Assembly (NCBI GenBank): GCA_937934595.1 | Contig: CALGZA010000011.1 | Span: forward strand, 1 to 37,729 | Origin: an uncultured Verrucomicrobiales bacterium | GTDB taxonomy: Bacteria > Verrucomicrobiota > Verrucomicrobiia > Verrucomicrobiales > Akkermansiaceae | Length of the DNA stretch: 37,729 nt | Direction of reading: 5' to 3' | Shown: positions 6,278-30,500 of the stretch, in pieces | How the letters are laid out: each line of letters starts with the position of its first letter | Position numbering within the stretch: the stretch's first letter is position 1 | Notes under the pieces: model-generated | What the model saw: only the letters and a program-made list of their open reading frames with translations | What the model was told of the DNA's origin: nothing | The model's database searches: none | Program-made: the position numbers and the translations under genes

Positions 6278-7615
6278 TCAATACCCCGTCTCCTCCTGCT
6301 TGCCCGCAGCCTTCTCCATCTGCAAAGTCGTTTCTAAATTCGGTATCGGCTTACCATGAGGATCAAACTGAGGAAAATTAAGATCTCGCTCCAGCTTTCT
6401 CACCGTATCAGCTCCTAAAATATGCTCAATCTGCTCCGCATCATCATGCACATGATCAGCCGCATAATCAGCCTGATCAGTCAGATACAGCTCCCATAAC
6501 CTATGGTTTCTCACTATCTCAGCCGCCCTCCTCCACCCAGAAGAGGTCAAATAAAGAGCAGACTTACCCTCCTCCCAGCTAGCCTCATCATTTCTAACAA
6601 GCTGCTGACCATCCTTAGTAACTTGCTCAAAAGATAACTTCCTCACCTCCGCAAGCCGCTCCACCCCCACACCAGATGACTTAAACCCATCCTCCTCAAT
6701 GATCCGGTAAATCGCCTTCAATGTATTCTCCCTATGAACGCGTGACTTCATCCCAGACCTCCTCAAATACTTAGCCAGCACACCATGACGAGGAGCCAAA
6801 AAATACGTGCAAGCAAACACAAACGCTGCCAGTAATGTGATCACCGGCCCAGTCTGAAACCTCACATCTATACTCGCTATATACCACCCTCCCAAGGCAG
6901 CCAACACACCCAATAAAACAGACAATCCCATCATCTTCTGAATCCTATTCGTCAACAAATAAGCAGTAGCAGCTGGCGTAATCAACATAGCAGATACCAA
7001 TATCACTCCCACAGCCTGTAATGCCACTACAACAGCAAATGCCAGTAACCCAAAAAACAACCCATTCAAAAACCTCACAGGATAACCCAAACCAATTGCA
7101 AATCCCTCATCAAAACTCAATACACGGAAAGGCCTCAGAAACATACACACCAGCATCCCCACAGCAAAGGTAGACCCCACCATCAACCATAAATCAACAT
7201 CAGCTATCGTAGTCAAATCACCAAACAAAAAACCATCCACACCAGGAAACTGCTGCGTCGAATTCCAAAACACTCCCACCGCAAAAAAAGAAGCCAGCAC
7301 TATCCCCAGCGCCGCATCAGACTTCAGCCGCGTGCTAGTCACTATAGCACGCACCACCCCCACACCCATTAAACCAGCTACCAAGGCACAAACAAAAATC
7401 ACCCACGGATCCCTATCATCACTCCACATAAACCCAGCAACCACACCAGGAAAAACAGCATGGGAAATAGCATCACCCAGTAAAGCCACTCGCCGCACAA
7501 CAACAAAACAACCCAACAAACCACAACATATCCCCACACAAATAGCCGCTATAGGAGCCTTCTGCGACAGCGAAAGCGCCAAAACATCTCCAACATTAAA
7601 CAATTCCCACATCAT
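6278..7615 (-). CDS. troC: Metal ABC transporter permease fused to a DtxR-like domain (TroC-DtxR)
   Basis: The protein has 445 residues. Residues 1 to about 285 are an ABC-3 permease with LLGDAISHAVFPGVV, RLKSDAALGI and MLITPAATAYLL landmarks. After a basic linker (residues ~290-300) comes a DtxR/MntR-like cytoplasmic module. It starts with a divergent winged-helix stretch (TLKAIYRIIEEDG... through LTSSGWRRAAEIV) and continues into a metal-binding/dimerisation helix set with HRLWELYL, HVHDDAEQIEHIL and NFPQFDPHGKPIP. The His, Asp and Glu residues of that second part are well kept. I chose the ATG at 7615, which overlaps the ATPase stop (TGATG), over the in-frame TTG at 7618. Such fusions occur in Planctomycetes, Verrucomicrobia and relatives; the attached domain may sense metal, gate the transporter or bind DNA at the membrane, which is inference. 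Confidence 0.9.
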   Translation of the reverse strand: MMWELFNVGDVLALSLSQKAPIAAICVGICCGLLGCFVVVRRVALLGDAISHAVFPGVVAGFMWSDDRDPWVIFVCALVAGLMGVGVVRAIVTSTRLKSDAALGIVLASFFAVGVFWNSTQQFPGVDGFLFGDLTTIADVDLWLMVGSTFAVGMLVCMFLRPFRVLSFDEGFAIGLGYPVRFLNGLFFGLLAFAVVVALQAVGVILVSAMLITPAATAYLLTNRIQKMMGLSVLLGVLAALGGWYIASIDVRFQTGPVITLLAAFVFACTYFLAPRHGVLAKYLRRSGMKSRVHRENTLKAIYRIIEEDGFKSSGVGVERLAEVRKLSFEQVTKDGQQLVRNDEASWEEGKSALYLTSSGWRRAAEIVRNHRLWELYLTDQADYAADHVHDDAEQIEHILGADTVRKLERDLNFPQFDPHGKPIPNLETTLQMEKAAGKQEETGY

Positions 7616-8385
7616 CAAATCTCATGCTTAGCCTCCGGTGTCTTAGCCGCCCGTTCCGCCACCTCATCAAGAATAGTCAATCGCCCACCATACGTCTTCT
7701 GAAGCAACTCAGTCGTATACATCTCATCCGTTTTCCCATAAGCCACCAACCGCATATTCAACAACAGCAAATGATCAAAATACTCACGCGCGGTCTGTAA
7801 ATCATGATGCACCACTAGCACCGTCTTACCACACTCACGCATCTCCTTAAGTAGCTCAATAATAGCCGACTCAGTAGCAGCATCCACTCCAGCAAAAGGC
7901 TCATCCATGAAATATAAATCACTATCCTGCGCCAATGCCCTCGCCAAGAAAACCCGCTGCTGCTGACCACCAGAAAGATTACCAATCTGCCTCTTAGAAT
8001 ACGGAAGCATCCCCACCTTATCTAGCGCCTCAGAAGCTATCATCCTCTCACGCTTTCCTACCCTGCCAAATAACCCCAGCTTCCCATATGTCCCCATCAA
8101 AGCCACATCCATCACCGTAACAGGAAAATCCCAGTCCACACTCTCTCGCTGAGGAACATAACCCACCCGATGCAAATTATCAGCCAGAGGTTTCCCAAAA
8201 ACCTTCACCCACCCCCCAGAATGAGGAACCACACCCATAATCGACTTAATAAGCGTAGACTTACCAGCTCCATTAGGCCCAATAATACCAACCAAACTCC
8301 CAGCCTCCACCTCCACATCCACCCCATAAAGAACCGGACGTTTATGGTAGGTAACTGTCAGATCATGAGTCTCCAGCGCTATCAT
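7615..8385 (-). CDS. troB: Metal ABC transporter ATP-binding protein (TroB/MntA-like)
   Basis: This 256-residue ATPase has Walker A GPNGAGKS (36-43), a Q-loop at YVPQR (77-81), signature LSGGQQQR (137-144), Walker B LYFMDEP (157-163) and a switch His in VVHHD (191-195). The sequence just after the Q-loop, VDWDFPVTV, is characteristic of Mn/Zn/Fe importers of the Tro/Mnt/Znu group. The ATG overlaps the lipoprotein's TGA by four bases (ATGA), and its own stop overlaps the fused permease start, so the operon is tightly coupled. It powers metal import from the cytoplasmic face. Confidence 0.95.
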   Translation of the reverse strand: MIALETHDLTVTYHKRPVLYGVDVEVEAGSLVGIIGPNGAGKSTLIKSIMGVVPHSGGWVKVFGKPLADNLHRVGYVPQRESVDWDFPVTVMDVALMGTYGKLGLFGRVGKRERMIASEALDKVGMLPYSKRQIGNLSGGQQQRVFLARALAQDSDLYFMDEPFAGVDAATESAIIELLKEMRECGKTVLVVHHDLQTAREYFDHLLLLNMRLVAYGKTDEMYTTELLQKTYGGRLTILDEVAERAAKTPEAKHEI

Positions 8386-9638: not shown

Positions 9639-12347
9639 ATGTCAGAATCAGAAGATAAACAGCACCTAGCACCACTGCCAGATTCTCTCCGCGAACAGCT
9701 TGAAAGCTTTAAAAAGCATCTCTGGCGGATTAAGATCACCGAAGCCGTCCTTGCTGGTCTCATAGGTCTTCTATTCTCATTCGCACTCATTTTTGCTCTC
9801 GACCGCTTCTGGGAGATCCCTCCCCTTGTAAGGCTCATCGTCCTCATAGCCGGCGTCTCTCTCTTCGCCGTATTCGCTCCATTCTGGATCAACCGTTGGG
9901 TTTTTAAACACCGTAAAGAAAACCAACTAGCACGCCACATCTCTAAACACTACCCAAACCTAGGTGACAGACTACTCGGTGTCGTAGAACTACAAAACCA
10001 AGACGAAAGCCAAAAAGCACTCTCGCCTGAGCTCCGTGAAGCGGCCATGGTCGCCGTCGCAAATGAAACTAAAGACAGAAATCTAAGCCTCGCTATATCA
10101 TCATCATGGACACGTAAACTTGCACTAGGTTTCACTGCCCTTGCTCTAGTAGCTGGTGGAGCATTCATCGCCTACCCTAAAGCAGGTAAAAATGCCCTCG
10201 CCAGATGGTTCATGCCCCTCTCTAAAACTGAACGCTTTACCTTCACCCAGGTAGACATGTCTAAAATCCCTCAGCCACTCTACACCCCCATTGGAGAAAA
10301 ATTCACCATCCCCATCCACCTCAAAAAAGAAACCGAAGACACTCCCTCATTCGCAAAAGCCAAATACACCAACGCTAAATGGCAAAATTACCCATACTCA
10401 AACGATAAATACACACTCGAATTCCCAGGAAAACGAGAAAAAGGAACCGTCAGCCTCCTCTTAGGTGACGCCAAACATAAAATCACCGTCCAGCCCATAC
10501 ACAGACCAAAAATCAGCGGCTATCAACAAGAAATAATCTACCCAGAATACCTTCAGCGCGAGCCCATACGCGCCTCACTAGCTACCACTCAGACAGAAGT
10601 CCTCACCGGCTCTAAAGTCACTATTACAGCATCAGCAGACCGTAAACTAAGTTCTGCCAAATTCCACTCACCCACCTTCGAGCCTCATGCTCCAGAGATC
10701 GATGAAGAAGAAGCAGAAATCCAAGGCATCGACATCAACGCTAAACCAGAGCCCGTCGCGCTGAGTCTAAATCACACCATCTCCGGTAACTCCGTGATCA
10801 CAGATCCTATCAAAATCAAAGATGGCACCATCACTCTTCCTCTATCATGGGTAGATGAATACGGAATCGCAGGTATAAAATCATCAGAATTCACCATCAA
10901 TTCAGTGCCTGACCTACCTCCCGTAACATACACAGAACGTGATTCAAAAAGCACCGTCATGCTCTACAATCAAGTCCTAAAGTTCAAACTCGCTGCTGAA
11001 GACAACTACGGCATCAAAAAAGCAGGAATCGTTTGGAAAGGTGAATTCACCACACCATCCCCAGACACCCCAGCCTCAGCTGAAAAAACCCTTCTTACTG
11101 GTGACCCATACATGACCTCAAGCAACAAAGAAGTTCTAATCAACTTCGTTGAAGAAGGCATCACACCCCAGAAACTAGAAGTTAGAACATGGGTGGAAGA
11201 CTATAACCCTGATACACCACGCATCTTCTCAGAACCCATCACTATATTCATTCTGAGCAAGGAAGAACATGCTGATCATCTAAGAGATAAAGTTGATAGT
11301 ATTCAGACTAAAATGCAAGACGTTACCAGAACAGAACAGGAAAACTTGGAAAAAAACAAACAACTCCTCAAAGACTTAAAAAATCCTAAAAAAGCAGCAG
11401 AAGCCAAAGCTAAACTCGCAGAACAAAAACGCGCAGAACTAGAAAATAAAGACGAAGTCAAAAAACTAGCACAAGAAATGACAGAAGCATTCAAAGAAGC
11501 CATCAAAAATGACTCTATCAAAAGCAAAGCTCTTAAAGACATGAAAGATGTCCTCAAAGACCTAAAAGATATGGCTAAAAAAGACATGCCAGAAGTTGCT
11601 GATGACTTAGATAAAGCTCAAAACAAAAAAAATTCAGAAGAAAAAACCAAGAAAGACCTCGATTCAGCTATAAAAAAACAGAAAAAGCTAATCGAAAAAA
11701 TGAAGAAAACTTCTAAAAAAGCAGACCGAGCCAAACTCAAACTAGAAGCAGGAACATTCGTCAACCGCCTCAGAAAAGCAGCCGCACAAGAAGAAGCCAT
11801 TGCCGGAACTATCATACAAGAAGCTAACAACATCTTCGGTCTACATTACAACGAATTAGACCCAGAACTCAAAAAAGTAATCCAAAGAATCTTCCTATCC
11901 CAAGAGAAAACCACATCGGACATTCGCTGGATCCTAGAAGACCTAACATTCTTCCACCAACGCACAGAAACACCCATCCATAAAGAAATCGTCGAAAAAA
12001 TGAACGACGAAAAAATTAAGGATGATAAAACTATTACAGAATTCGTAGCCTCCATCGAAAGACAAATAGAAGAACAGCACACTGCCATGACCATAGACAA
12101 TGTCATATTAACCGCCAAAAAACTACGCGAATGGGCCAAATTACTTGAACAAGCTAAAGATGAGGATTCTTCACAGGGTGAATCAGACGGAGGATCTCCA
12201 CCACCTAACAACGAAGACAAAGACTTTGAATTCATGCTCAAAGTCATGAAAATGATTCAAGCTGAACAACTACTCAGAGACAAAACCCGCGCCCTAGAGG
12301 AAAGCAAAAGAAATGCACTAAAATCATCTCCTGCACCATTACCATAG
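9639..12347 (+). CDS. DUF4175-type membrane protein with long coiled coil
   Basis: The protein has 902 residues. Two N-terminal membrane helices (about 34-54 and 62-86) are followed by a cytoplasmic-looking stretch with HISKHYPNLGDRLLG, a third helix (about 159-179), then a large extracytoplasmic part. Residues ~200-540 look like beta-sandwich domains. Residues ~545-705 are a highly charged Lys/Glu/Ala-rich coiled coil, and a helical C-terminal part with a Ser/Pro/Gly-rich linker follows. This organisation fits DUF4175, a family of unknown function usual in Planctomycetes and Verrucomicrobia and often found near BatA/MoxR-type envelope genes, which are not seen here. It heads a seven-gene run of exported proteins and could anchor or organise them at the membrane (inference). 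Confidence 0.85.
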   Translation: MSESEDKQHLAPLPDSLREQLESFKKHLWRIKITEAVLAGLIGLLFSFALIFALDRFWEIPPLVRLIVLIAGVSLFAVFAPFWINRWVFKHRKENQLARHISKHYPNLGDRLLGVVELQNQDESQKALSPELREAAMVAVANETKDRNLSLAISSSWTRKLALGFTALALVAGGAFIAYPKAGKNALARWFMPLSKTERFTFTQVDMSKIPQPLYTPIGEKFTIPIHLKKETEDTPSFAKAKYTNAKWQNYPYSNDKYTLEFPGKREKGTVSLLLGDAKHKITVQPIHRPKISGYQQEIIYPEYLQREPIRASLATTQTEVLTGSKVTITASADRKLSSAKFHSPTFEPHAPEIDEEEAEIQGIDINAKPEPVALSLNHTISGNSVITDPIKIKDGTITLPLSWVDEYGIAGIKSSEFTINSVPDLPPVTYTERDSKSTVMLYNQVLKFKLAAEDNYGIKKAGIVWKGEFTTPSPDTPASAEKTLLTGDPYMTSSNKEVLINFVEEGITPQKLEVRTWVEDYNPDTPRIFSEPITIFILSKEEHADHLRDKVDSIQTKMQDVTRTEQENLEKNKQLLKDLKNPKKAAEAKAKLAEQKRAELENKDEVKKLAQEMTEAFKEAIKNDSIKSKALKDMKDVLKDLKDMAKKDMPEVADDLDKAQNKKNSEEKTKKDLDSAIKKQKKLIEKMKKTSKKADRAKLKLEAGTFVNRLRKAAAQEEAIAGTIIQEANNIFGLHYNELDPELKKVIQRIFLSQEKTTSDIRWILEDLTFFHQRTETPIHKEIVEKMNDEKIKDDKTITEFVASIERQIEEQHTAMTIDNVILTAKKLREWAKLLEQAKDEDSSQGESDGGSPPPNNEDKDFEFMLKVMKMIQAEQLLRDKTRALEESKRNALKSSPAPLP

Positions 12348-12409: not shown

Positions 12410-13450
12410 ATGACCTTAAAGAAAAGCATTCTCAAAACTCACATCCTTGCTCTACTCGCGATAACTTCCTCATTATTCATTGCCTCAACTATGAATGCTG
12501 ATGCTCAAGGCCGTAAAAGAAATAAAGTAGTCACCATACCTCCTAATGTTGAAATCTCATACAAGAACGGACTAAAGTTCCTAGCTAGAATACAAAAGGC
12601 CGACGGCACATTCAGTGAAGACGCAAGATCTGGTCGAGGATACAGTTCTCAACCCGGTATCACAGGTATTTGTGTCCTTGCGTTCCTCGCACACGGCGAA
12701 GATCCTGAATTTGGCCCCTACGCTAAAGTAATTAAAAAAGGAATCAACTCCATACTCAAACAACAAAAAAGTACAGGATATATCGGTAGCAGCATGTATA
12801 ACCACGGCTTCGCCACTCTAGCTCTAGCAGAAGCATACGGCATGATCGAAGATGATAGACTAGCCGGAGCTATCAAAAAATCTGTTGCCCTCCTAATAAA
12901 ATCCCAAGAATCTAACTCCAAAGGTGGCTGGCGATACACCCCAGAAGATAACAGCGCAGATAGCACAGTTGCTGGATGCCAGCTGGTAGCTCTTCTCGCC
13001 GCCAGAAATGCAGGCATTCCCGTTCCAGATAAAAACATAGACCTAGCTGTCAAATACATGGAAAGTTGTAGAGCTTCCAATGGTGGTTATGGCTACACCT
13101 CTAAATCAAATCCCAGAACCACCCTCACTGCAATAGGCTCACTATGCATGTCTCTCGCTAAGAAAAAAAATGGGAAAGGCTTTAAAGCTAGCACCAAATT
13201 CTTAGAAAAACGCATCGAAGATAATGGTGAATACCTCTTCTATCACCAATACTACATGGCTCAAGCACTATTCCACGCTGACGAGGAAATATGGAAACGT
13301 TGGAACGATAGAAATTCAGCAATAATGACATCAGCACAAGCAGGAAACGGAAGCTGGAATGATAATAGATTAGGCAGTTCAGGTGCTACTGGATTCGCAT
13401 TATTATCTATGGCTCTTAACTACAGATTCCTCCCTATATACGAAAAATAA
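12410..13450 (+). CDS. Secreted alpha/alpha-toroid protein (prenyltransferase/squalene-oxidase repeats)
   Basis: The 346-residue protein has an N-terminal signal peptide (about 1-33, ending near MNADAQG). The rest is built of helical repeats with the QKADGTF/GGWRYTP/NGGYGYTS/GNGSW pattern of the prenyltransferase and squalene-cyclase toroid. The Asp-rich catalytic DxDD motif of hopene/squalene cyclases is absent, so terpene cyclisation is unlikely. It resembles the exported toroid proteins of Planctomycetes and Verrucomicrobia, whose role is unknown, and a binding or scaffold role is possible. It starts 62 bases after the DUF4175 gene and ends 20 bases before the first member of the paralogue array, so one transcript is likely. 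Confidence 0.85.
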   Translation: MTLKKSILKTHILALLAITSSLFIASTMNADAQGRKRNKVVTIPPNVEISYKNGLKFLARIQKADGTFSEDARSGRGYSSQPGITGICVLAFLAHGEDPEFGPYAKVIKKGINSILKQQKSTGYIGSSMYNHGFATLALAEAYGMIEDDRLAGAIKKSVALLIKSQESNSKGGWRYTPEDNSADSTVAGCQLVALLAARNAGIPVPDKNIDLAVKYMESCRASNGGYGYTSKSNPRTTLTAIGSLCMSLAKKKNGKGFKASTKFLEKRIEDNGEYLFYHQYYMAQALFHADEEIWKRWNDRNSAIMTSAQAGNGSWNDNRLGSSGATGFALLSMALNYRFLPIYEK

Positions 13451-13470: not shown

Positions 13471-14919
13471 ATGAAACTTATCACAACCCATCTCATCAGT
13501 CTTTTAGCCATCACGTCCTCCATGGCTGCTGACAACCATGATCTCATAAACTTTAAAAACCATGACACACTCCATGGTAAATTCATAGGTTTCACCAAAT
13601 CAGGAAAAATCATCTGGAGAAATAATGCAGCAGACAAAAATATCGCATTCACTACACCTGAAGTGCGTAAAATAGTCATAAACAAAGGCAAACCAATTAA
13701 AGAATTCACTCACAAAGGCTTTATCGAACTGACAAACAACGATAAAATTCCAGGTAAATTCATTTCTTACTCCAATGATAAAATCACTATCAATACCGAC
13801 TATTCAGGAACCATTAATATCCCCAAAAAAGAAATCCTAAACGTTCACTTTAATCCCACTGGACATCATTTCAGATATTCTGGCCCATTTTCTAAAGATG
13901 AGAAATGGCTACTAAAATACGCGGACAACCGTGATACCTCCACCATCGATGAGAAGAAAAAATCTTGGCAGTTCAAAAATTTCAGCCTTACTCATAAAGG
14001 TGATCACAGCGCCATACTCAAAAAACTCGATCTGCCTGAAAAATTCAAGATTACATTTAACGCATATACAAATCAGTTCTACTACCCATCCTTAGTATTA
14101 ATGGCGGATCTAAAAATACCTAAGAACATTAAAGCAATTGAAAATAACAACCAATACAGCAATAGATACGGACGGTATAATAAAGCTCACTCTCTAGGTA
14201 ACTGTATTCTCATATCATTGAGCCCTACACGCTCCACTTTGAATTTCCATGGATTCAATGATAAGAATACTCCAGAACTAAAAACATTAAATAACATAGT
14301 AAAAAATACTAGCTCAGACTCTAAAACCTCTAAAACCGCATTTGAAGTCAGATGTGATAAATCTACAGGAGCCACCTTGCTATACGCTAACGGGAAAATG
14401 GTAGCAAATTGGAACATCAGCTCAGTTATCAATAAACTCAAAGGATCATACATTGGATTCAATATCTCTCACAGAAGTAAAAAAAGTAATACCGCTATTA
14501 GCGACCTTACCGTTAGTCAGTGGAACGGCATACAAGATTCAGACCTATCCCTAGAACATGAGTCACGTGATGTCGTATTGCTAGATAACATTACTGATAG
14601 ATACTCCGGTGAAATTACCTCCATCACAAACAAAGTAGTCGAAATGAAATCCGACCATGGAGAATTAACCATACCCACAGATCAAATACACTCTGCCACA
14701 TTCCAGAGAGCCACCCCCAGTGAGCCACTGAAAGATGTAGAAAATGAAATAACCATTCATTTCTACGGTACAGGTTCAATCAGCGGTAAACTCGTAGAAT
14801 CAAATAAAGAATCCGTAACAATAGAATCCTCAAAATGTGGCAAATTGAATATCAAAACTGAATTCATTCACGCTATAGAATTCTCTAGTATGGACGAAGT
14901 TCACGAGAACTTTGATTAA
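13471..14919 (+). CDS. Exported paralogue 1 (type A): beta modules flanking a LamG/DUF1080-like domain
   Basis: The 482-residue protein has a signal peptide at 1-19 (ending SSMAAD). Module 1 (about 25-70) has NHDTLHGKF, and module 2 (about 82-127) has NNDKIPGKF and ends TINIPKKEILNVHF. The central domain (about 132-355) runs from RYSGPF to SQWNG and includes STLNFHGFND and a LLYANGKMVANW strand typical of jelly-roll carbohydrate-binding or DUF1080-like folds. Modules 3 (about 367-412, TDRYSGEI) and 4 (about 427-472) follow. The protein ends acidic, without an anchor or sorting signal. I recognise no catalytic residues and no named family. It is first of the array, 20 bases after the toroid gene, with no Shine-Dalgarno sequence. 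Binding of a polysaccharide or cell-surface glycan is a guess from the fold. Confidence 0.8.
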   Translation: MKLITTHLISLLAITSSMAADNHDLINFKNHDTLHGKFIGFTKSGKIIWRNNAADKNIAFTTPEVRKIVINKGKPIKEFTHKGFIELTNNDKIPGKFISYSNDKITINTDYSGTINIPKKEILNVHFNPTGHHFRYSGPFSKDEKWLLKYADNRDTSTIDEKKKSWQFKNFSLTHKGDHSAILKKLDLPEKFKITFNAYTNQFYYPSLVLMADLKIPKNIKAIENNNQYSNRYGRYNKAHSLGNCILISLSPTRSTLNFHGFNDKNTPELKTLNNIVKNTSSDSKTSKTAFEVRCDKSTGATLLYANGKMVANWNISSVINKLKGSYIGFNISHRSKKSNTAISDLTVSQWNGIQDSDLSLEHESRDVVLLDNITDRYSGEITSITNKVVEMKSDHGELTIPTDQIHSATFQRATPSEPLKDVENEITIHFYGTGSISGKLVESNKESVTIESSKCGKLNIKTEFIHAIEFSSMDEVHENFD

Positions 14920-14966
14920 ACTATCCCCCTAAACACAGCACACAAAATCTATTTCCTAATTTTAAA

Positions 14967-16307
14967 ATGAGTTCAAAATCAATCATATCCACCGTCTGCT
15001 TATTCACCTCAGTATTACTGAGTCATTCTAAAACCTCAGACTCAATTACTCTTAATAACGGAAACACCCTCTCAGGAGAATTGAAACCAAGTAACAAAAT
15101 AAGTACATTCACATTAAAATCGGCTATCTCAAACAAGCCTATCAAAATCAAAGAATCTTCAGTGCACGAAATCATCTTCAAAACCAAAGAAAATAGCATC
15201 ACTGAACTCAAAGATAACATCCAACTTATAAATGGAGATAACATCTCTTGTTCTATCACGCAGCTCAACAAAGATTCCGTCACTATCAATACAAATTCTA
15301 TCGGAAATCATACTATACCTCGTAACAAAATCACTAAAATCATATTCAACGGTATAGGAGACAAATATATCTACTCCGGCCCAGGAAAAATTAGCAGGTT
15401 ATGGATTACTAAAAACGGTAAACCTAAGATCCAAAATAATAAACTAATTTTCAATGAATACTCAGAAGCTGCAAAAATAATTAATAACTTACCTGAAAAT
15501 TATACATTCGAGTTTACAACCACATTTCAAGATAACGCACCTACATTAAGAATTTATCTTTCCTCAGATACAGCAAACCATGACAAAAAAGATGATTGCT
15601 TCTTCCTTGACATCAATAGACGCCAAATCAGTGTTAAATCATATAACAAAGGAAATATTAAAACATTATCTGAACTTAATCCTGACGAAAAATTATTCGA
15701 TAACTCCTCATTTCATGTAGCCCTTCACGTAGACCGGAAAAAAAAACAACTAGCACTCTACATAAACAACGACCTCAAATTAACCATCTTAGACACCTTA
15801 ATAAAACCTAAAGGTAAATACTTCATATTTAAAAATCTAGCCAGATCAGGATACAAGACAGAAATAACTAATATAAAAATAGCCAACTGGACTGGTAGTG
15901 TGCCAAAGAGTGTCAATCCAACAAAACAAGCTTCTACAAAACATGACTTCATTGTAAATAAATCAGGTGAATTCATTACAGCAAATATAGCTAAAATCAT
16001 TAATACTGACAATACACCTCATTTGCTTTTTAAACTCCCATTCGCTAAAAAAGAATCTTCAATTCCATTAAATTCATTAAATTACATAAAATTTAAATCC
16101 CCTGAAAAACCCTTATCTCCTGTCAAATCAAACTATAAACTCATACTCAATTCTGGTGCATCGCTTTCATATCTAAAATCACAAATGATGAATGATCATT
16201 TAAATATTTATAATCCACTTCTTGGAGACTTAGCTATCCCAAGTTACGCGCTCTCGTCTGTTGAAGCCATTCCTACAAAAGATCCTAAAGATAAATCAGA
16301 TGATTAA
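14967..16307 (+). CDS. Exported paralogue 2 (type B)
   Basis: The 446-residue protein has a signal peptide at about 1-22 (ends LLSHSKTS). The two N-terminal modules are clear: NNGNTLSGEL with SSVHEIIF, and NGDNISCSI with IPRNKITKIIF. The central domain opens YSGPG, is shorter than in type A, and contains LRIYLSSDTA, FLDINRRQISVKSYNKG and QLALYINNDLKL before closing ANWTG. Modules 3 and 4 (around 330-380 and 392-440) are more diverged; module 4 ends with LLGDLAIP...VEAIP. The closest relative in the window is the fifth paralogue, which shares YNKG and the closing VEAI/IEAI. The start is an ATG 47 bases after paralogue 1 without a ribosome-binding sequence. The function is unknown. Confidence 0.78.
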   Translation: MSSKSIISTVCLFTSVLLSHSKTSDSITLNNGNTLSGELKPSNKISTFTLKSAISNKPIKIKESSVHEIIFKTKENSITELKDNIQLINGDNISCSITQLNKDSVTINTNSIGNHTIPRNKITKIIFNGIGDKYIYSGPGKISRLWITKNGKPKIQNNKLIFNEYSEAAKIINNLPENYTFEFTTTFQDNAPTLRIYLSSDTANHDKKDDCFFLDINRRQISVKSYNKGNIKTLSELNPDEKLFDNSSFHVALHVDRKKKQLALYINNDLKLTILDTLIKPKGKYFIFKNLARSGYKTEITNIKIANWTGSVPKSVNPTKQASTKHDFIVNKSGEFITANIAKIINTDNTPHLLFKLPFAKKESSIPLNSLNYIKFKSPEKPLSPVKSNYKLILNSGASLSYLKSQMMNDHLNIYNPLLGDLAIPSYALSSVEAIPTKDPKDKSDD

Positions 16308-16357
16308 TTCATCTAACAAATGCTAGCTAAAATTCTATAATTGATAACTCATTCACT

Positions 16358-17863
16358 ATGTCCTTACCCATTTTCAAATTAATAACATCTACTCTCTGTC
16401 TCATTCTCAGCAGCCTTTCCTTGCTTGCCATTCAGGAGGCTAAACCAAAAGAGGACCCAGTAATTACTAACCCATTAATCTCGTTAGAGGGCTCCATACA
16501 CTTCGATAATGGAGATTCAATAAGTGGTAAAATACTGAATTGGTCTAAATCTAATATATCTGTCAGTAGCCCAGACCTTCTAGAGCCCGTAACCTTCTCA
16601 AATTCAAATATTCTTAAAATTACTTTTAATGATAATCAAACCACAAATAAAGCAAATCCACATCTAGACGAGACTATACTTATCATGAACAATCGTGATA
16701 ACGAAGTAGGCAAAAACGGTATGATCAGAGGCAGCCTTGTAGACATTACCCCCCAGAAAATTAAACTCAATACAGCATACGCAGGGGAAATCTCAGTGAT
16801 GAGAAAATTCATATCCAAAATGGAAATAGACCCCAAAAAAGGCTACTTATACTATGGCCCCAAGAGCCTAGAGCATTGGCACAATAACTCATTGACCAAG
16901 GGATGGAAGTTTGAAAACAATTCTCTAATCTCTTCTAGAACCGCTAATGGTAATATTGCTAAAAACATAAATCTCCCAGACCAAACATCAATCAGCTTTG
17001 ACCTGTCATGGAAAAAATCACCCTATATATCACTCTTCCTTTATTCATCTGACCATGAAATGGCTAGACCAGATAACTACTACAAGCTTAGTCTCGATAG
17101 AGGTAGATGGTTGTTAAACAAATACATTGATGGTAGAAGAGTTAATACCACCAGAATACTTAAAGAAAAAAAACTATTATTAAGAAAAAATGCTTTCGGT
17201 AGACCCAGAATAACACCACTAAAATCATTCAATAAACTGCACGCACAATACTCAATTTATATAGATAAAACCAAAGGCTTATTCCATATCTACCAAAATG
17301 GTAGTAAATTAATATCATTTCTAGATGCAGATCCTAAAACCAAAAAATTTGGAACTGCCATGCACCTACTTAACAACTCACGGTATCCTGTCAGAATTAA
17401 AAATCTCAGAATTTCCAAATGGAATGGCCATATTCCTAACAAAATAAACGAAAAAACCTTCAGCAGCCTAAAAGATGCTAAACAACCCAAAGTCGAAGGT
17501 GAACATATACTTCTTAAAAACGGAGATTTCCTATTCGGAAAAATCAACAAAGTGGACAATGGGCTCGTTGAAATAGAAACTAAACACGCTCCCCTTAAAC
17601 TCCCCTTAAACAGATTGAGATCTATCGATATCACCGCATCCATTAAGAAAGAGGAACCTATTAAAGACATTGATGATATCAAATGCTACTACAAAGATAA
17701 AGGATGGGTCATCCTAAAGCTCATCGCATTAGGAGAAAAATCATTTACTGCCTACCACCAAGCCATTGGTGAAAAGAAATTCAATTACAACGCATTCAAA
17801 CGTATCGACCTCAATATATACGACGAAGAAGCCAATAGTAAGAGAAAACCAGATACATGGTAA
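16358..17863 (+). CDS. Exported paralogue 3 (type C)
   Basis: At 501 residues this is the longest of the array. The signal peptide covers about 1-26 (a Leu/Ser-rich core ending LLAIQEA), followed by a polar linker. Module 1 is canonical (DNGDSISGKI). Module 2 is interrupted by a short Asn/Gly-rich insert before MIRGSLVDI. The centre opens YYGPKSLEHW, has a Lys/Arg-rich stretch around residues 260-290 not seen in the other types, and closes SKWNGHIP. Module 3 is the clearest copy of the repeat in the window (LKNGDFLFGKI with PLKLPLNRLRSIDI), and module 4 is diverged. The C-terminus is basic and polar. There is no partner of the same type nearby; the function is unknown. Confidence 0.78.
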   Translation: MSLPIFKLITSTLCLILSSLSLLAIQEAKPKEDPVITNPLISLEGSIHFDNGDSISGKILNWSKSNISVSSPDLLEPVTFSNSNILKITFNDNQTTNKANPHLDETILIMNNRDNEVGKNGMIRGSLVDITPQKIKLNTAYAGEISVMRKFISKMEIDPKKGYLYYGPKSLEHWHNNSLTKGWKFENNSLISSRTANGNIAKNINLPDQTSISFDLSWKKSPYISLFLYSSDHEMARPDNYYKLSLDRGRWLLNKYIDGRRVNTTRILKEKKLLLRKNAFGRPRITPLKSFNKLHAQYSIYIDKTKGLFHIYQNGSKLISFLDADPKTKKFGTAMHLLNNSRYPVRIKNLRISKWNGHIPNKINEKTFSSLKDAKQPKVEGEHILLKNGDFLFGKINKVDNGLVEIETKHAPLKLPLNRLRSIDITASIKKEEPIKDIDDIKCYYKDKGWVILKLIALGEKSFTAYHQAIGEKKFNYNAFKRIDLNIYDEEANSKRKPDTW

Positions 17864-17908
17864 GCTGCTAGCACCAAACCCACTAAAATATATCAATGTC
17901 GTAATTAT

Positions 17909-19366
17909 ATGAAGCTATTTCAAAAATCATTACTCTGCTTATGCACGTCAACTCTATGCTTATACTCTAAATCATTCGCTGGCCAACCAGCTAAAATCAC
18001 CTTCCATAATGACGATTCCCTGCGCGGCTCATTCACGGGAATTACCGAAAAAAATAAAGCCGTTTTGAATAGTGAGTTTTCTGCTGAGCCTATCCATTTT
18101 GATGTTTCTCAAGTTAGCAATATTGTATTTTACAACACTAACTTCAAAGTCCCTTCAAAGTCGATAAGCAGAATATCATTACTAAACAACGACATCATTG
18201 AAGGACATATTATAGAATTAGCAGATAGCAGCCTTAAGCTGAAAAGCCCAAATCTAGGAGATATCACTATCCCCAAAAAATACATTCTCGAAATAGACAA
18301 CAAAATCTCAGATAAAGAGATAATCTATCAAGGCCCTAATAAGAAAAAAGAGGACTGGAAGCTGCTATTCAGCAGCCCAAAAATCGCAGGGAAATACAAA
18401 GAAGCGAAAGCACCCTGGATCCTCAATGACTACAACATCACTCATAATTCTCTCGAAGGTGCATTTCTAACTAAAGCATCTTATCCTGATAAATTCTCTG
18501 CTACATTCAACATCAAAAACACGCAACCATACGCTCCAGCCATCATCCTTATGGCTGATCTTAACATACCAAAAGAAATCAAACAGCCTGAGAATAAGCT
18601 AAAAAGAATGACGGGAAGAATACACCATGGTAAATACCTAGGTAACTCATTTGTGATGGGACTCAGCGCCAATACACCCAGACTCACCTACTACGGATTC
18701 AATGATGACCATTCACTCGCACTCAAAAGCTTCGAGAATGACATTCCCAGAGGTTTCAACCGCTCTTCCACCACGTCTACTAATTACGAAATCAAAGTAG
18801 ATAAAACAAAGGGCATCATTCTACTCTTCGTTAACAATAAAATCTCAGCCCGCTGGAAAGTAGATTTCAACAGTATAAAAGCCAAGGGCTCATACCTAGG
18901 TTTTAAAAAGGCTCAATACTCCCGCTCCAGTAATACGACACAAGTATTTATTTCTGACATAACAATCAAAACTTGGAACGGTATAATTCACCCAGCTTCT
19001 CCTGTCTCCAGCACCGAAAGAGACGTCATTTTACTCAAAAATGATACCGATAGAATATCAGGCGAAATTATCTCCATTGTGAATGACAAAGTAAAAATAA
19101 AGTCTACCAGTTCTAAATCCAATAACCTAACTATCCATGTCGACCAAGTGAAGCAGATCATTTTCTCTAGCCAGGATGAAAAACAAAATACCACCTCATT
19201 AAACGAAAACATCGTTATAAACACATTAGGGCCAGATCGCTATTCAGCAAAATCACTGCAATCTAAGGACAAAAAACTCGAGATTACATCAGAAAAATTT
19301 GGTAACGCTAGTATAGAAATGAAAAATATTACGTCTATCAAATTTCCACATTCAGATAATGAATAA
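17909..19366 (+). CDS. Exported paralogue 4 (type A)
   Basis: The 485-residue protein has a signal peptide at about 1-25 (ends SKSFAGQP). It aligns along its whole length with paralogue 1: both have MADLNIP/MADLKIP, GNSFVMGLS/GNCILISLS, YGFND/FHGFND, a WKV or WNI strand followed by KGSYLGF/KGSYIGF, ISDITIKTWNG/ISDLTVSQWNG and RDVILLKNDTDR/RDVVLLDNITDR. The four flanking modules are all present, the second ending LGDITIPKKYILEI. It starts 45 bases after paralogue 3 without a Shine-Dalgarno sequence. Similarity is clear at protein level but weak at DNA level, so the copies have diverged for a long time under protein-level constraint. The function is unknown. Confidence 0.8.
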   Translation: MKLFQKSLLCLCTSTLCLYSKSFAGQPAKITFHNDDSLRGSFTGITEKNKAVLNSEFSAEPIHFDVSQVSNIVFYNTNFKVPSKSISRISLLNNDIIEGHIIELADSSLKLKSPNLGDITIPKKYILEIDNKISDKEIIYQGPNKKKEDWKLLFSSPKIAGKYKEAKAPWILNDYNITHNSLEGAFLTKASYPDKFSATFNIKNTQPYAPAIILMADLNIPKEIKQPENKLKRMTGRIHHGKYLGNSFVMGLSANTPRLTYYGFNDDHSLALKSFENDIPRGFNRSSTTSTNYEIKVDKTKGIILLFVNNKISARWKVDFNSIKAKGSYLGFKKAQYSRSSNTTQVFISDITIKTWNGIIHPASPVSSTERDVILLKNDTDRISGEIISIVNDKVKIKSTSSKSNNLTIHVDQVKQIIFSSQDEKQNTTSLNENIVINTLGPDRYSAKSLQSKDKKLEITSEKFGNASIEMKNITSIKFPHSDNE

Positions 19367-19383
19367 ATATCAATTATTGACTC

Positions 19384-20745
19384 ATGTTAAACATGTTACT
19401 CCACTTGATAAAACATCTCCATTACATTTTAAAATCACTCATCCTCCTACCTGTCATAACCTGCTGTTGCGTTCTCCTCACTACAGAACTGCATGGCCAA
19501 GACTTATTATTCCTAAAAAATAAAAACAGACTAAGTGGTAAACTAGAAACCAGTAACTCAGCAGGTGTTATTTTACTGAATTACCCTGAAGCTAAACTCC
19601 CCCTGAAAATCAAAGAGTCATCTATACAAAAAATTCTATTTCAGGAGAAAAAAAATGTCGTCCCCACTTCATCAGAAAAAATACATTTCACGAACGGAGA
19701 TTCTCTCGCCTGCACCATTCTCACTTTGAATGAAAAAACAATTTCATTCAAATCAAGCATCACAACAAAGCAGACTATCCACAGAAATCTTGTATCAAAA
19801 ATCGAATTCAACACAAATTCAGACAGAATAATATACAAAGGTCCCACTAACGACTCAAACGAATGGCATAATAAAACTAACAGCTGGAAATTTGAGAAAA
19901 ACAAACTAACTACCACCAAAATAGGCTACATTTCAAAAAAAATAAATAAGCTCACTACTAACTATATAATCCAGTTCCAGCTCAAGTTCCCAAACAAACC
20001 CCCAAAACTAAGATTCTGTTTCTCAGCTAACAGCAACAAGCTTAATAGAGATTCTCAGTGTTATTACATGGATATCAACAGTCACGGAATCATAGTGCAT
20101 GCATACAATAAAGGAGTCACCAACAAACTAATGGCAGTAGCTGCTAGCAACAAACTCTATCACAACTCAAAGGTCAATATTGGTTTACATGTCAACAGAG
20201 ACAAAAAACAAATCGCTCTGTACACCAACGGCAAACTCGTTGCCGTGACTAAAAAAGCAATCATCAACCCAACTGGTAACTGTATTATCTTTGAGAATAA
20301 ACAACACCGCGGCATTCTAACAGAACTAAGTGATATTAATACAACAACCAGCTATTCAGATAAAACACCAATGAGCCTAGCTGTAGTCGATGAAAAAATC
20401 AATAAACATGACGTCATATCAGATCTTAACGGTAAACAATCAAACGGCCAAATCATTGGTTTTATCAAAGAAAATGATCAAGACGTTATCAAATTCTTAC
20501 CACTCTTCGCTAAGAAAACCACAAATATACCCAGAAACAATATAAGCACTTTAGGATTCAAAAAAGAAACATCTACCCCTACCCACAAAAAAGCTAATTA
20601 CCTGCTTACCCTCACATCTGGTAACAAAATATCATTTTCCTCTTCACAAATTATCGATAAAAATATCGCCATCCAGCACCCACTCCTAGGTAAACTGCAG
20701 TTCCCTGTCAACCTTGCTTCATCTATTGAAGCCATTACCAAATAA
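19384..20745 (+). CDS. Exported paralogue 5 (type B)
   Basis: The 453-residue protein has a long signal-like N-terminus (about 1-38) with a cysteine cluster TCCCVLL. The Cys could be acylated, but the site does not match a lipobox well. Modules 1 and 2 contain KNRLSGKL with KIKESSIQKILF (compare KIKESSVHEIIF in paralogue 2) and NGDSLACTI. The centre opens YKGPTNDSNEW and includes CYYMDINSHGIIVHAYNKG and QIALYTNGKLVA. The closing Trp-Asn-Gly motif is lost. Module 4 ends LLGKLQFP...SIEAI as in paralogue 2. It begins 17 bases after paralogue 4 and ends four bases before the convergent ATP-grasp-like gene, leaving no room for a terminator between them. Confidence 0.78.
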   Translation: MLNMLLHLIKHLHYILKSLILLPVITCCCVLLTTELHGQDLLFLKNKNRLSGKLETSNSAGVILLNYPEAKLPLKIKESSIQKILFQEKKNVVPTSSEKIHFTNGDSLACTILTLNEKTISFKSSITTKQTIHRNLVSKIEFNTNSDRIIYKGPTNDSNEWHNKTNSWKFEKNKLTTTKIGYISKKINKLTTNYIIQFQLKFPNKPPKLRFCFSANSNKLNRDSQCYYMDINSHGIIVHAYNKGVTNKLMAVAASNKLYHNSKVNIGLHVNRDKKQIALYTNGKLVAVTKKAIINPTGNCIIFENKQHRGILTELSDINTTTSYSDKTPMSLAVVDEKINKHDVISDLNGKQSNGQIIGFIKENDQDVIKFLPLFAKKTTNIPRNNISTLGFKKETSTPTHKKANYLLTLTSGNKISFSSSQIIDKNIAIQHPLLGKLQFPVNLASSIEAITK

Positions 20746-27595: not shown

Positions 27596-30500
27596 ATGCC
27601 AAACATCATAAACATCCTTAGATCTTTGGGGTCACTTCTCAGCATCTTATCAATGCTTACACTCTCTTCGTGCCAAAAAAAATCACAAACCATCACTGCC
27701 AATACTCAGCCCATCGAAAAACACACACAAGATCACGGACATAACCAAATTGACTTCAACAACCAGGTAATGCCCATCCTCTCTGATAAATGCTTCCACT
27801 GTCACGGCCCAGACGCCAAAAACCAAAAATCTGATTACCGCCTAGACACAGAGGAAAACGCAAAAAAAGCACTCACCGGCGGAGGCTATGCCATCGTCCC
27901 CGGTAACCTGGAGCAAAGTAAACTCCACATGCATATCCACGATACAGGGGATGACATGATGCCCCCAGCAGATTCTAATCGCTCACTAAGTAAACATGAA
28001 AAAAATATACTCGATACATGGATCCTGCAAGGTGCCAAATACTCCAAACACTGGGCATACATACCAATACCAAAAAAAATAAAACTCCCAGAAAAAACAA
28101 CCTGGGCAAAAAACGAAATTGACCAGTTCATACATTCCCAATTCGCAACTCACAACCTCAAACCAGCTCCAGAAATCAACAAAGAAAAATGGCTCCGCCG
28201 CGTCACCTTTGACCTCACTGGACTCCCACCCACACTAACAGAACTAGACAACTTCAGCGCAGACACATCACCTCATGCCTACGAAAAAGCAGTAGACCGC
28301 CTATTCCTCACTGATGCATATGCAGAAAGAATGACAAACGAATGGATGGATGTCGCACGCTACGCAGACAGCTACGGCTACCAGACCGATAAACCTCGCT
28401 TCGTCTGGCCATGGAGAGACTGGGTCATCAGCTCATTCAAAAAAAATCAACCATACAGTGAATTCATCACTTGGCAGCTAGCTGGAGACCTACTCCCTAA
28501 CCACACCAGAGAACAACAACTAGCCACCACATTCAATCGTCTCCACTCACAAAAAGCAGAAGGAGGCAGCGTCGAAGAAGAATTCCGCGTAGAATACGTC
28601 GCAGACCGCCTCCACACATTCGGCACTGCATTCCTCGGCCTCACCATGGAATGCAGCCGCTGTCATGACCATAAATATGACCCCATATCCACAAAGTCAT
28701 ACTACGAAATGAGCTCCTTCTTCGCTAACATCGATGAAGCAGGTCTCTACTCCTTCTTTAACGCAAACGCACCACCACCACCCACTCTCCTTCTAACCAC
28801 TAAGGAACAAGACAAAAACATAGCCACTAACCTCTCAACCCTCAAAAAAGCAGAGCAAAATCTCCAAAATACCAAAAACAATCAACAGTCTCATTTTCAA
28901 GCATGGCTAGAAAATAGACCCCAAACACCACAATGGAAAAACATCACAGCTCACTTCTCATTCGACTCAATAGAAGGCAGAAAAATCCCAAACAACATTA
29001 ACCCAAAAGCAATAGCATCGACCAATCCAGCTAACAAAATACTTCCCCAAGGTGTCACCAAAGCTGCAGTTCAACTCACGGGTGACCACCCCATCAACAT
29101 CAAAATACCAAAATACAACAGAGAAGCACCACTCACATTCTCCTTCTGGATAAAACCCACAAAACTACACGACCGAGCCGTCATCTTCCACCAGTCTCGC
29201 GCATGGACTGACTCCGCCAGTAAAGGATACGAGTTACTCCTAGAAAAAGGCAAACTCAGCGCAGCATGGATCCACTTCTGGCCAGGAAACGCCCTGCGCG
29301 TCAGAGCCACAGAAGAACTCCCCATCAACAAATGGACACACGTCTCCATCGTTTACGATGGATCCAGCTCAGCCAAAGGACTCCAGATCTACACAGATGG
29401 TAACCTAGCACCCTCAGAAATAATACGAGATCAGCTTACCAAAGAAATAGTCAAACGCGCAGGCAGATCACTAACCATCGGACAGCGCTTCCGTGACAGC
29501 GGATTTAAAGACGGCCTCCTAGACGAATTCAAAATATTCAACAGAAACATCTCCAGCATCGAAGCCAAACAACTCTTCGATAAAAAATCACTCTCATCGC
29601 TATTAAAAAAACCTCTAACAGCACTGAGCCCCTCAGAAAAAAAACAGCTCTTCCCCTACTTCCTCGGAAACCACTCAGAACCATACATTACAGCAAGTAA
29701 AACACTTCAAACCGCTCGCGCTAATTATAATGACTCTATAGACACCACCACCGGAATCATGGTCATGAAAGAACTTCCAAAACCAAAAAAAGCATTCATC
29801 CTAGATAGAGGCCTATACAGCGAGAAAGGCCAAGAAGTAACCGCAAACACTCCAGACATCCTCCCCCCATTCCCAGAAAAAACCAAAAAAAATCGCCTCG
29901 GACTCGCCAAATGGCTACTCCAAGATAACCACCCACTCACAGCGCGCGTCACTGTCAACCGATACTGGCAAATGATCTTCTCACGCGGAATCGTCTCTAC
30001 ACCTGAAGACTTCGGAAGCCAAGGTAATCGCCCCAGCCACCCAGAACTACTCGACTGGCTCGCCAGAGACTTCATGGACAACAACTGGGACGTCCGCAGA
30101 CTACTCAAGCAAATGGTCCTCTCCGCCACCTACAGACAAAGCACTGTAACTACTCCAGAAATGAGAGAAACAGACCCTAAAAATATTTACCTCTCAAGAG
30201 CCAACCCAGCCAGATTAACCGCCGAAATGATCAGAGACCAAATGCTAGCCACCAGCGGACTCCTTAATACAACCATCGGCGGACCATCCGTCAGACCATA
30301 TGAAGTTGCCTACGCACTGAAACCCATGAAGCCAGAAACCAAAGACGGCCTCTACCGCCGTAGCCTATACACTTGGTGGCAAATAACAGCACCAGCACCC
30401 GTCATGACAACATTCAATGCATCTAAAAGAGACGTATGCCGTGTAAGCAGAGACGTCACCGCATCACCACTACAAGCACTCGTACTACTCAATGGTGCCG

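What the first reader, a model, noticed from the sequence alone, without database searches (positions are those of the whole stretch)
13471..20745. Five tandem exported paralogues in A-B-C-A-B order
All five share one unusual plan and are packed with 17-50-base spacers, yet protein divergence is high. Type pairs (1 with 4, 2 with 5) imply that an A-B block was duplicated around or after a C gene. Retention of distinct A, B and C types suggests non-redundant parts of one assembly, for example a hetero-oligomeric extracellular structure. I know of no described system with this composition.
Basis: partly seen in the sequence, partly recalled or inferred. Interest (0 to 1): 0.85.

Follow-up and report, generated by a model that had tools for sequence, protein, structure and literature searches.

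The report
Exported lectin-fold trio plus extra pair
A Rubritalea-like bacterium carries five neighbouring genes for exported proteins with a predicted lectin-like fold, of three related kinds; the three-kind set is conserved in its bacterial family beside the same envelope genes of unknown function, and this genome has doubled two of the kinds.

Summary
In detail: five exported-looking paralogues, order A-B-C-A-B, gaps 47/50/45/17 bases, 18-35% identical, genes 1+4 and 2+5 pairing. The conserved unit is A-B-C. It follows an alpha/alpha-toroid gene (PT) in 59 of 66 Akkermansiaceae loci with enough sequence and in 8 of 10 congeneric loci. Of the loci examined, only this genome adds a second A-B after C. 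Models of A1 and C3 (pLDDT 88 and 86) show one plan: two five-stranded SH3/Sm-like barrels, a concanavalin-like jelly roll, two more barrels. In some distant Verrucomicrobiota the genes follow DUF58-BatA; here MoxR-DUF58-BatA lies on another contig. In three genomes of a related family the counterpart ends in a thioredoxin domain. Best reading: A, B and C are structural subunits of one envelope assembly served by a MoxR/Bat-type machine (confidence 0.5). Complex formation is inferred, not shown. Side finding: the small exported gene S, usual between D and PT, has in-frame TGA codons (only TGA) in 31 of 69 loci, and in this genome on another contig, each with a hairpin just downstream. SelB occurs in 29 of 31 such genomes, 9 of 27 others. 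S is probably an undescribed selenoprotein, pointing to redox chemistry.

The parts
9639..12347 (+). D: 902-aa protein that reads as membrane-anchored with a charged, helical C-terminal part; first gene of the conserved D-(S)-PT-A-B-C module
   Evidence: ORF; D and S found upstream of PT in 54 of 63 loci with at least 4 kb before PT, neither in the other 9; no Pfam family over cut-off
12410..13450 (+). PT: 346-aa exported-looking alpha/alpha-toroid protein (squalene-cyclase/prenyltransferase-like fold)
   Evidence: PF13243 E 5.9e-08 and PF00432 E 3.4e-06, both over cut-off; 44-72% identical to 14 orthologues aligned
13471..14919 (+). gene 1, type A
   Evidence: model m623ecb7ef695, pLDDT 88.1, pTM 0.85
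13534..13686 (+). gene 1, barrel 1 (residues 22-72)
   Evidence: five strands in DSSP of the model; related to barrels 2 and 3 by hhalign
13711..13854 (+). gene 1, barrel 2 (residues 81-128)
13858..14529 (+). gene 1, concanavalin-like jelly roll (residues 130-353)
   Evidence: VIA Z 15.3, rmsd 3.3, 185 residues to 1oq1_A; Z 15.3, rmsd 2.8, 181 residues to 4jqt_A
14560..14706 (+). gene 1, barrel 3 (residues 364-412)
14740..14889 (+). gene 1, barrel 4 (residues 424-473)
   Evidence: its link to the other barrels is the weakest
14967..16307 (+). gene 2, type B
16358..17863 (+). gene 3, type C (last gene of the set in relatives; the best-scoring type for most copies of distant classes)
   Evidence: model m7cb0bd766828, pLDDT 86.0, pTM 0.79; jelly roll Z 15.3, rmsd 3.0, 176 residues to 1oq1_A
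17909..19366 (+). gene 4, second type A, long-branch duplicate (keeps 38 of 59 conserved A positions; gene 1 keeps 48, the lowest of the 56 other rows 47)
19384..20745 (+). gene 5, second type B (keeps 24 of 32 conserved B positions; gene 2 keeps 20, the lowest of the 58 other rows 25)

Best explanation
Genes 1-3 are the window's copy of a conserved exported set, A-B-C. Each protein is one unit: two small SH3/Sm-like barrels, a concanavalin-like jelly roll, two more barrels (modelled for A1 and C3). The set belongs to a module D-S-PT-A-B-C. In distant relatives D, PT and C-like genes follow DUF58 and BatA genes (shown by gene order); in this genome MoxR-DUF58-BatA and S lie on other contigs. 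Inferred: the three types pack together outside the inner membrane as structural or adaptor subunits of one envelope complex with the toroid PT and the membrane protein D, and a MoxR ATPase with its von Willebrand (DUF58/BatA) partners assembles or remodels it. A redox task is likely, from the probable selenoprotein S of the same module and the thioredoxin fused to the counterpart of A-B-C in a related family. The extra A-B (genes 4, 5) is a duplication found only in this lineage, whose A copy diverged fast: a variant subunit pair or neofunctionalised duplicate, not a core part.
For: Set and order: A-B-C after PT in 59 of 66 loci with at least 5.5 kb after PT and in 8 of 10 congeneric loci. 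Co-occurrence in 288 genomes of the phylum: of 50 genomes with the close PT type (E 1e-60 or better), 48 have a strong C-profile match, within 8 kb of PT in 43 (tally of positions); the 9 genomes of genus g3 listed without PT also lack a C match. Operon: DUF58 and BatA lie on the same contig just before D and PT in G040, G256 and G212 (in G040 E 1.3e-48 and 1.3e-16). The half with MoxR (PF07726 E 3.2e-62) is on contig C123 of this genome, its 752-aa gene 37.5% identical, E 6e-180, to the operon copy in G256. Fusion: in G021, G241 and G258 the gene after PT encodes 1083-1257 aa with similarity to these proteins and a C-terminal redoxin/thioredoxin domain (E 2e-21 to 2e-19); in G258 profile matches at 50-244, 486-589 and 655-897 fit two units in one chain. 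Structure. S.
Against: One or two copies suffice elsewhere (G040, G256; L114, L116, L119), and G010 has no A, so an A-B-C heteromer is not obligatory. C-like genes also occur away from PT: 6 of 49 genomes had no copy near PT (some on short contigs), and five C-like genes looked at away from PT had no D, S or PT beside them. In 9 of 63 loci D and S are not upstream of PT. Three of the six f4 genomes sampled (G025, G029, G223) have no C match. The window has no MoxR, DUF58 or BatA; whether MoxR heads the operon in the distant genomes was not checked. No complex was predicted. Putative glycosyl hydrolases match the jelly roll as well as any lectin does (4jqt Z 15.3). Deleting all bat genes in Leptospira biflexa gave no oxidative-stress phenotype (PMC3557215, abstract).
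Confidence: 0.5

Rival explanations
1. A, B and C are surface or periplasmic glycan-binding proteins: the jelly roll binds polysaccharide and the paralogues differ in ligand, so the array is a diversifying lectin repertoire rather than parts of one assembly.
For: Many of the best structural matches are lectin-like: galectin-like 1oq1, CBM66 4azz, legume lectins, calreticulin. Divergence is high and copy number varies from 1 to 5.
Against: A one-of-each set in fixed order next to the same genes in 59 of 66 loci is unlike a lectin repertoire. Invariant positions are mostly G, W, P, N, D. I recognised no glycan-degradation gene in the module.
Confidence: 0.23
2. The proteins are enzymes of the DUF1080/3-keto-glycoside hydratase sort, using the jelly roll as catalytic domain.
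For: A putative glycosyl hydrolase, 4jqt, ties for the best match to A1 (Z 15.3); 3s5q and 3imm score 13.1-13.9, and DUF1080-type or 3-keto-glycoside hydratase structures (3hbk, 3nmb, 3osd, 9fbe, 8v31) 12.3-13.0. One of 56 C members hits PF06439 at E 0.046. Type A has a conserved polar stretch N-G-T-D-R-x-S-G (A1 373-380, with I for the first G and N-I-T-D-R-Y-S-G in gene 1 itself), though in barrel 3, not in the jelly roll.
Against: Non-enzymatic jelly rolls score as high. No curated cut-off is met by the five proteins, and the C members gave only weak Pfam matches, best E 0.0022. The invariant columns of the jelly roll are mostly W, G and P. Active-site residues were not compared.
Confidence: 0.1
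3. The extra A-B pair is only a transient tandem duplication on the way to loss, without function (compatible with any reading of A-B-C itself).
For: Seen in 1 genome; gene 4 has lost 21 of 59 conserved A positions and lies below all 56 other rows.
Against: Both frames are intact at 485 and 453 aa after divergence to 33-35% identity; gene 5 keeps 24 of 32 conserved positions, more than gene 2 (20).
Confidence: 0.12

Closest known systems
MoxR-DUF58-BatA (Bat, 'Bacteroides aerotolerance') operons
   Same: In G040, G256 and G212, of other classes, D, PT and C-like genes follow DUF58 and BatA genes; this genome has a contiguous MoxR-DUF58-BatA-752 aa set elsewhere.
   Different: The window holds none of MoxR, DUF58 or BatA; exported A-B-C proteins, toroid PT, D and S are not in the Bat operons I know of (recalled, not tested).
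Concanavalin A-like jelly-roll proteins (1oq1, 4jqt, CBM66, DUF1080, calreticulin)
   Same: Central domain fold, Z 12-15 over about 145-190 residues in the rows shown.
   Different: Flanked by two pairs of small barrels; 5-17% identity in the rows shown; no Pfam cut-off met by the five proteins; ligand binding unknown.
Sm/SH3-like small barrels (Hfq, LSm, RimP C-terminal domain)
   Same: Five strands with a short turn before the last; several single barrels score weakly to Hfq, Hfq_1, LSM, Rof and RimP-C.
   Different: All weak: Hfq in 4 of 48 barrels, best E 0.0015; the commonest weak match is DUF6897, 14 of 48. The barrels sit in exported-looking proteins, so RNA binding is not expected.
Bacterial selenoproteins (119-family list in PMC13188914)
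   Same: Gene S of the module: in-frame UGA, downstream hairpin, SelB and often tRNA-Sec in the same genomes.
   Different: A small exported-looking protein with Sec in a low-complexity linker (single U in 20 loci, U-x5-U in 10, U-x2-U in 1). I saw no entry with this description in Table 1, but some entries give no motif. The S proteins scanned (six in NCBIfam, four in Pfam) met no cut-off.

Membership tests
Bat/MoxR-DUF58-BatA operon | MoxR AAA+, DUF58 (vWA) and BatA genes contiguous with the genes in question | tested here: not met
   None recognised in the window; the BatA and DUF58 profile matches of this genome lie on other contigs. DUF58-BatA before D-PT-C in G040, G256, G212 (MoxR there not checked); MoxR-DUF58-BatA on contig C123 of this genome
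Bat/MoxR-DUF58-BatA operon | role in aerotolerance or maturation of a protein complex | not testable with these tools
   needs mutants; MoxR roles as told in PMC3893208 (abstract and passages)
Concanavalin A-like jelly-roll superfamily | sandwich jelly-roll fold | tested here: met
   Z 15.3 for A1 residues 130-354 and for C3 residues 162-358
Concanavalin A-like jelly-roll superfamily | carbohydrate binding | not testable with these tools
   needs binding assays
Sm/SH3-like barrel | five-stranded barrel with recognisable family profile | tested here: inconclusive
   DSSP strands fit; only weak profile matches, Hfq in 4 of 48 barrels, best E 0.0015; barrels not searched alone by structure
Squalene-hopene cyclase (for PT) | NCBIfam equivalog or subfamily cut-off | tested here: not met
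   TIGR01507 27.5 bits against 431.1; TIGR01787 35.4 against 322.7
Selenoprotein (for S of the module) | conserved in-frame UGA, no other stop | tested here: met
   31 of 69 S genes, 42 TGA, no TAA/TAG inside; two TGA in this genome at C95:7590 and 7602
Selenoprotein (for S of the module) | SECIS-like hairpin downstream | tested here: met
   stem of 7-9 pairs in 31 of 31 TGA loci when the short motif is folded; motif starts 15 nt after the last TGA in 28 of 31, 21 or 33 nt in 3, and 15 nt in this genome; motif absent in 36 of 38 genes without TGA. SelB binding untested
Selenoprotein (for S of the module) | Sec machinery in the genome | tested here: met
   SelB over cut-off in 29 of 31 TGA genomes and 9 of 27 non-TGA genomes scanned, 11 of 38 not scanned. 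tRNA-Sec in 23 of 31 against 9 of 27 when I keep only full-length hits by hand, but against 13 of 27 at the family cut-off (Fisher p 0.06)
Selenoprotein (for S of the module) | selenocysteine in the protein | not testable with these tools
   needs mass spectrometry or 75Se labelling

The most novel reading that the evidence does not exclude
D-S-PT-A-B-C is an undescribed selenium-dependent envelope machine of Verrucomicrobiota: a MoxR/Bat ATPase builds a periplasmic hetero-oligomer of A, B and C (lectin fold between barrel pairs), and the selenoprotein S, or a fused thioredoxin in another family, supplies redox chemistry. The window shows a variant with a second A-B pair.
Probability: 0.25. 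Interest if true: 0.85.

Novelty: new variant of a known kind. Interest (0 to 1): 0.6.

Why it matters
MoxR/Bat operons are widespread but what they build is mostly unknown. Here one has a fixed, exported, structurally tractable client-like set, a toroid partner and a probable new selenoprotein. That gives concrete candidates for the product of such an operon and makes the question testable in cultured Akkermansiaceae. It would also add a selenoprotein family that does not look like the thioredoxin-fold majority.

Tried and rejected
I first noted that S is lost in this genome, because only 62 bases separate D and PT (note); a genome search found it on contig C95, so the claim was dropped.

Five separate functional parts: rejected, because only A-B-C is conserved.

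Foldseek's first twelve hits for A1, and nearly all of the 50 rows shown, are receptor-binding domains of clostridial neurotoxins and their companion proteins, with TM to the query about 0.2-0.3 and rmsd mostly 13-23. This is the shared jelly-roll fold stretched over the whole chain; VIA-align ranks a Bacillus galectin-like protein and a putative glycosyl hydrolase first for A1. One companion protein is in the list for C3 (8c8g, Z 13.9, rank 9). I see no toxin relation.

DUF4175 as a name for D is recalled from memory and no Pfam hit supports it. PDB sequence search with the C profile and with the barrel profile gave nothing convincing (best E 0.014 and 0.18). The flanking barrels were not searched alone by structure, and only two of five proteins were modelled. 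Rfam found nothing in the window; promoter and terminator patterns were no more than in shuffles. Paper searches for MoxR/DUF58/BatA with Planctomycetes, squalene-hopene cyclase/DUF4175 with Verrucomicrobia, MoxR/prenyltransferase operons, and selenocysteine with Rubritalea/Roseibacillus/Akkermansiaceae listed no paper that by its title or abstract start describes this module (listings, plus passages of PMC7159879). Other listings served to find reviews; passages of PMC4807772 on planctomycete selenoproteins were seen, its supplements not.

Full report
What is there. Five + strand genes fill 13471-20745 with gaps of 47, 50, 45 and 17 bases. Identity is 35.0% between genes 1 and 4, 32.7% between 2 and 5, and 17.8-23.1% between all other pairs. 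Trees place the 15 A rows on one branch (100/100) and the 15 C rows on one (98/96); B is one group but for a long row from G010. Gene 4 sits with gene 1 (95/78). Gene 5 sits just outside gene 2 and three sister species, within a B clade of this genus (99/96); forcing 2 with 5 is not rejected (AU p 0.20). Gene 4 is on a long branch (2.85 against 0.81 for gene 1).

Where it comes from. Records that match the window's genus-mates by contig number and length are labelled Verrucomicrobiales, Akkermansiaceae, Rubritalea sp. or Rubritalea profundi, so the window is from a Rubritalea-like member of the Akkermansiaceae. In the 10 congeneric genomes where the locus was found, A-B-C follows PT in 8 (C cut by a contig end in G008), A-B-C-C in one (G002) and B-C in one (G010); an eleventh (G001, 58% complete) gave no match. 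In 80 named loci found through PT (the best 80 of 310 kept by the tool), 66 have at least 5.5 kb after PT: 59 A-B-C, 2 A-B-C-C (one of them, L166, is one C gene in two frames), 3 weak-B then C (L114, L116, L119; the last two labelled Akkermansia muciniphila, as are other records that have A-B-C), 1 B-C, 1 with A only; the other 14 are cut short. None of these loci has A-B-C-A-B. In sister genome G008 a contig begins with the last 125 residues of a C gene, probably the rest of the one that ends contig C386. It is followed by five other genes and, some 5 kb on, by the same ATP-grasp-trpG-trpE-secA genes that follow gene 5 in the window, without a second A-B. So the second A-B was gained, or kept, only in this lineage, after C.

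Wider family. Among 288 genomes of the phylum, 56 match the C profile at E 1e-5 or better. Seven of these are weak and were set aside; of the other 49, 43 have a match within 8 kb of PT and 6 do not. Of 50 genomes with the close PT type (E 1e-60 or better), 48 have a strong C match; G159 and G299 do not (from the tables). Five C-like genes away from PT were looked at and have no D, S or PT beside them, so the family is wider than this module.

The larger system. In G040, G256 and G212, of other classes, DUF58 and BatA genes, a ~750-aa gene, D, PT and one or two C-like genes run in one direction (DUF58 and BatA placed by Pfam profiles, and scored in G040). G035 looks the same by sequence similarity, with a C-like match just after PT. 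D is longer there and carries S at its C-terminal end: 45-58 bits in the last 190-230 residues of the four chains checked, from L095, L096, L097 and L100. In the window's genome MoxR-DUF58-BatA-752 aa is contiguous on contig C123. The 752-aa protein is 37.5% identical to the G256 operon copy (E 6e-180), while that of a second Bat operon on C36 is 26% (E 4e-70). The C36 operon ends with a PT paralogue and a 919-aa protein with a thioredoxin-like match (PF00578 E 1.3e-6). In G021, G241 and G258 (family f4, same order) the gene after PT encodes 1083-1257 aa, is similar to these proteins, and ends in a redoxin/thioredoxin domain; G021 also has a PpiC domain. In G258 a start-of-unit match at 50-244, a barrel match at 486-589 and an end-of-unit match at 655-897 fit two barrel-jelly-roll-barrel units in one chain. 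The three other f4 genomes sampled (G025, G029, G223) have no C match.

Structure. A1 (58-row alignment) gives pLDDT 88.1, pTM 0.85; C3 (56 rows) 86.0, 0.79. Both show barrel-barrel-jelly roll-barrel-barrel. The jelly roll matches galectin-like 1oq1 (Z 15.3 in both), a putative glycosyl hydrolase 4jqt (Z 15.3 and 13.5) and CBM66 (Z 13.5 and 14.5). The barrels are related to each other by profile comparison: barrels 1-3 clearly (hhalign probability 89-99%), barrel 4 unevenly (1-96%). Single barrels give repeated but weak matches to Hfq, LSm, Rof and RimP-C, and most often to DUF6897 (14 of 48). Invariant columns are mainly G, W, P, N and D, which suits scaffolds more than enzymes; type A also has an N-G-T-D-R-x-S-G stretch in barrel 3.

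Gene S. Between D and PT most of the loci carry a small exported-looking gene. Of the 80 loci, 38 have it in one frame, 31 have it broken in frame by one (20 loci) or two (11 loci) TGA codons at one place, and 11 show none, 2 of them cut off there. All 42 interrupting codons are TGA. A motif with codons AGC ATG GGT GCC/TCC ATG CTN (one locus GGC for AGC) begins 15 nt after the last TGA in 28 of 31 and 21 or 33 nt after it in 3; it folds into a stem of 7-9 pairs in 31 of 31; 36 of 38 uninterrupted genes lack it. SelB is present in 29 of 31 TGA genomes and 9 of 27 others scanned (Fisher p 1.3e-6, relatedness not corrected). For tRNA-Sec the counts are 23 of 31 and 9 of 27 if only full-length matches are kept by hand, but 23 of 31 and 13 of 27 at the family cut-off (p 0.06); the extra ones are about 84 nt long and may be tRNA-Ser, and the tool warned that its filters lose weak matches. 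The two TGA genomes without SelB are MAGs; one of them has tRNA-Sec. In the window's own genome S is on contig C95 at 7212-7907, with TGA at 7590 and 7602 and the hairpin 15 nt on, next to a gene 78% identical to the neighbour of D in two relatives; SelB and tRNA-Sec are present. Six S proteins against NCBIfam and four against Pfam met no cut-off. In the 119-family table of PMC13188914 (Table 1, read) I saw no entry with this description; PMC9312934 was read in passages.

How it most likely works. Shown: conserved set, order, predicted fold, gene-order link to DUF58-BatA, co-occurrence with PT. Inferred: A, B and C co-assemble outside the inner membrane; D anchors; PT is a partner; MoxR with DUF58/BatA assembles or remodels the complex, as MoxR ATPases are thought to do for other complexes (PMC3893208, abstract and passages); S or thioredoxin gives a redox function. 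Against a simple oxidative-stress role: bat deletion in Leptospira biflexa had no such phenotype (PMC3557215, abstract). Genes 4 and 5 add a variant pair; both are intact. Gene 4 keeps 38 of 59 conserved A positions, fewer than all 56 other rows; gene 5 keeps 24 of 32 B positions and gene 2 keeps 20, both under the lowest of the 58 other rows (25).

Novelty. None of the five proteins reaches a Pfam or NCBIfam cut-off, and my paper searches listed no paper on the module. Because it attaches to a known operon kind and uses known folds, I call it a new variant of a known kind. The five-gene array itself is a local elaboration.

Noticed in passing
L104-L183 between D and PT (31 loci); G000:C95:7212-7907 (L239): Probable undescribed selenoprotein S: one or two in-frame TGA codons, hairpin just downstream, SelB co-occurrence.
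   Followed up: partly
L224 8107-14341 (G000:C123): MoxR-DUF58-BatA-752 aa gene set, corresponding to the half of the operon that some distant relatives keep joined to D-PT-C.
   Followed up: yes
L225 (G000:C36:50000-69000): A second, paralogous MoxR-DUF58-BatA operon with a 1533-aa gene, a PT paralogue and a 919-aa protein with a thioredoxin-like match.
   Followed up: partly
L101 9183-12956, L102 9605-13198, L103 9683-12934: Proteins similar to A/B/C that end in a redoxin/thioredoxin domain, L101 also with PpiC.
   Followed up: partly
L040 8818-10284 (G004): An orphan A-type gene away from PT in a congeneric genome.
   Followed up: no
L243-L247: C-like genes away from PT in five genomes of other groups, in L243 and L244 followed by what looks like the same kind of ~475-500-aa gene.
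   Followed up: no
L041, L042, L046 upstream of D: Three congeneric genomes carry a large similar-looking gene directly upstream of D; the L042 one matches YhdP and AsmA below their cut-offs.
   Followed up: no
L166 7424-8926: The C gene is split into two frames in this locus, a frameshift or assembly error.
   Followed up: no
window 27596-32244: Neighbouring large exported-looking protein and DUF1501-type protein pair, a common Planctomycetes/Verrucomicrobia type (names recalled; translation).
   Followed up: no
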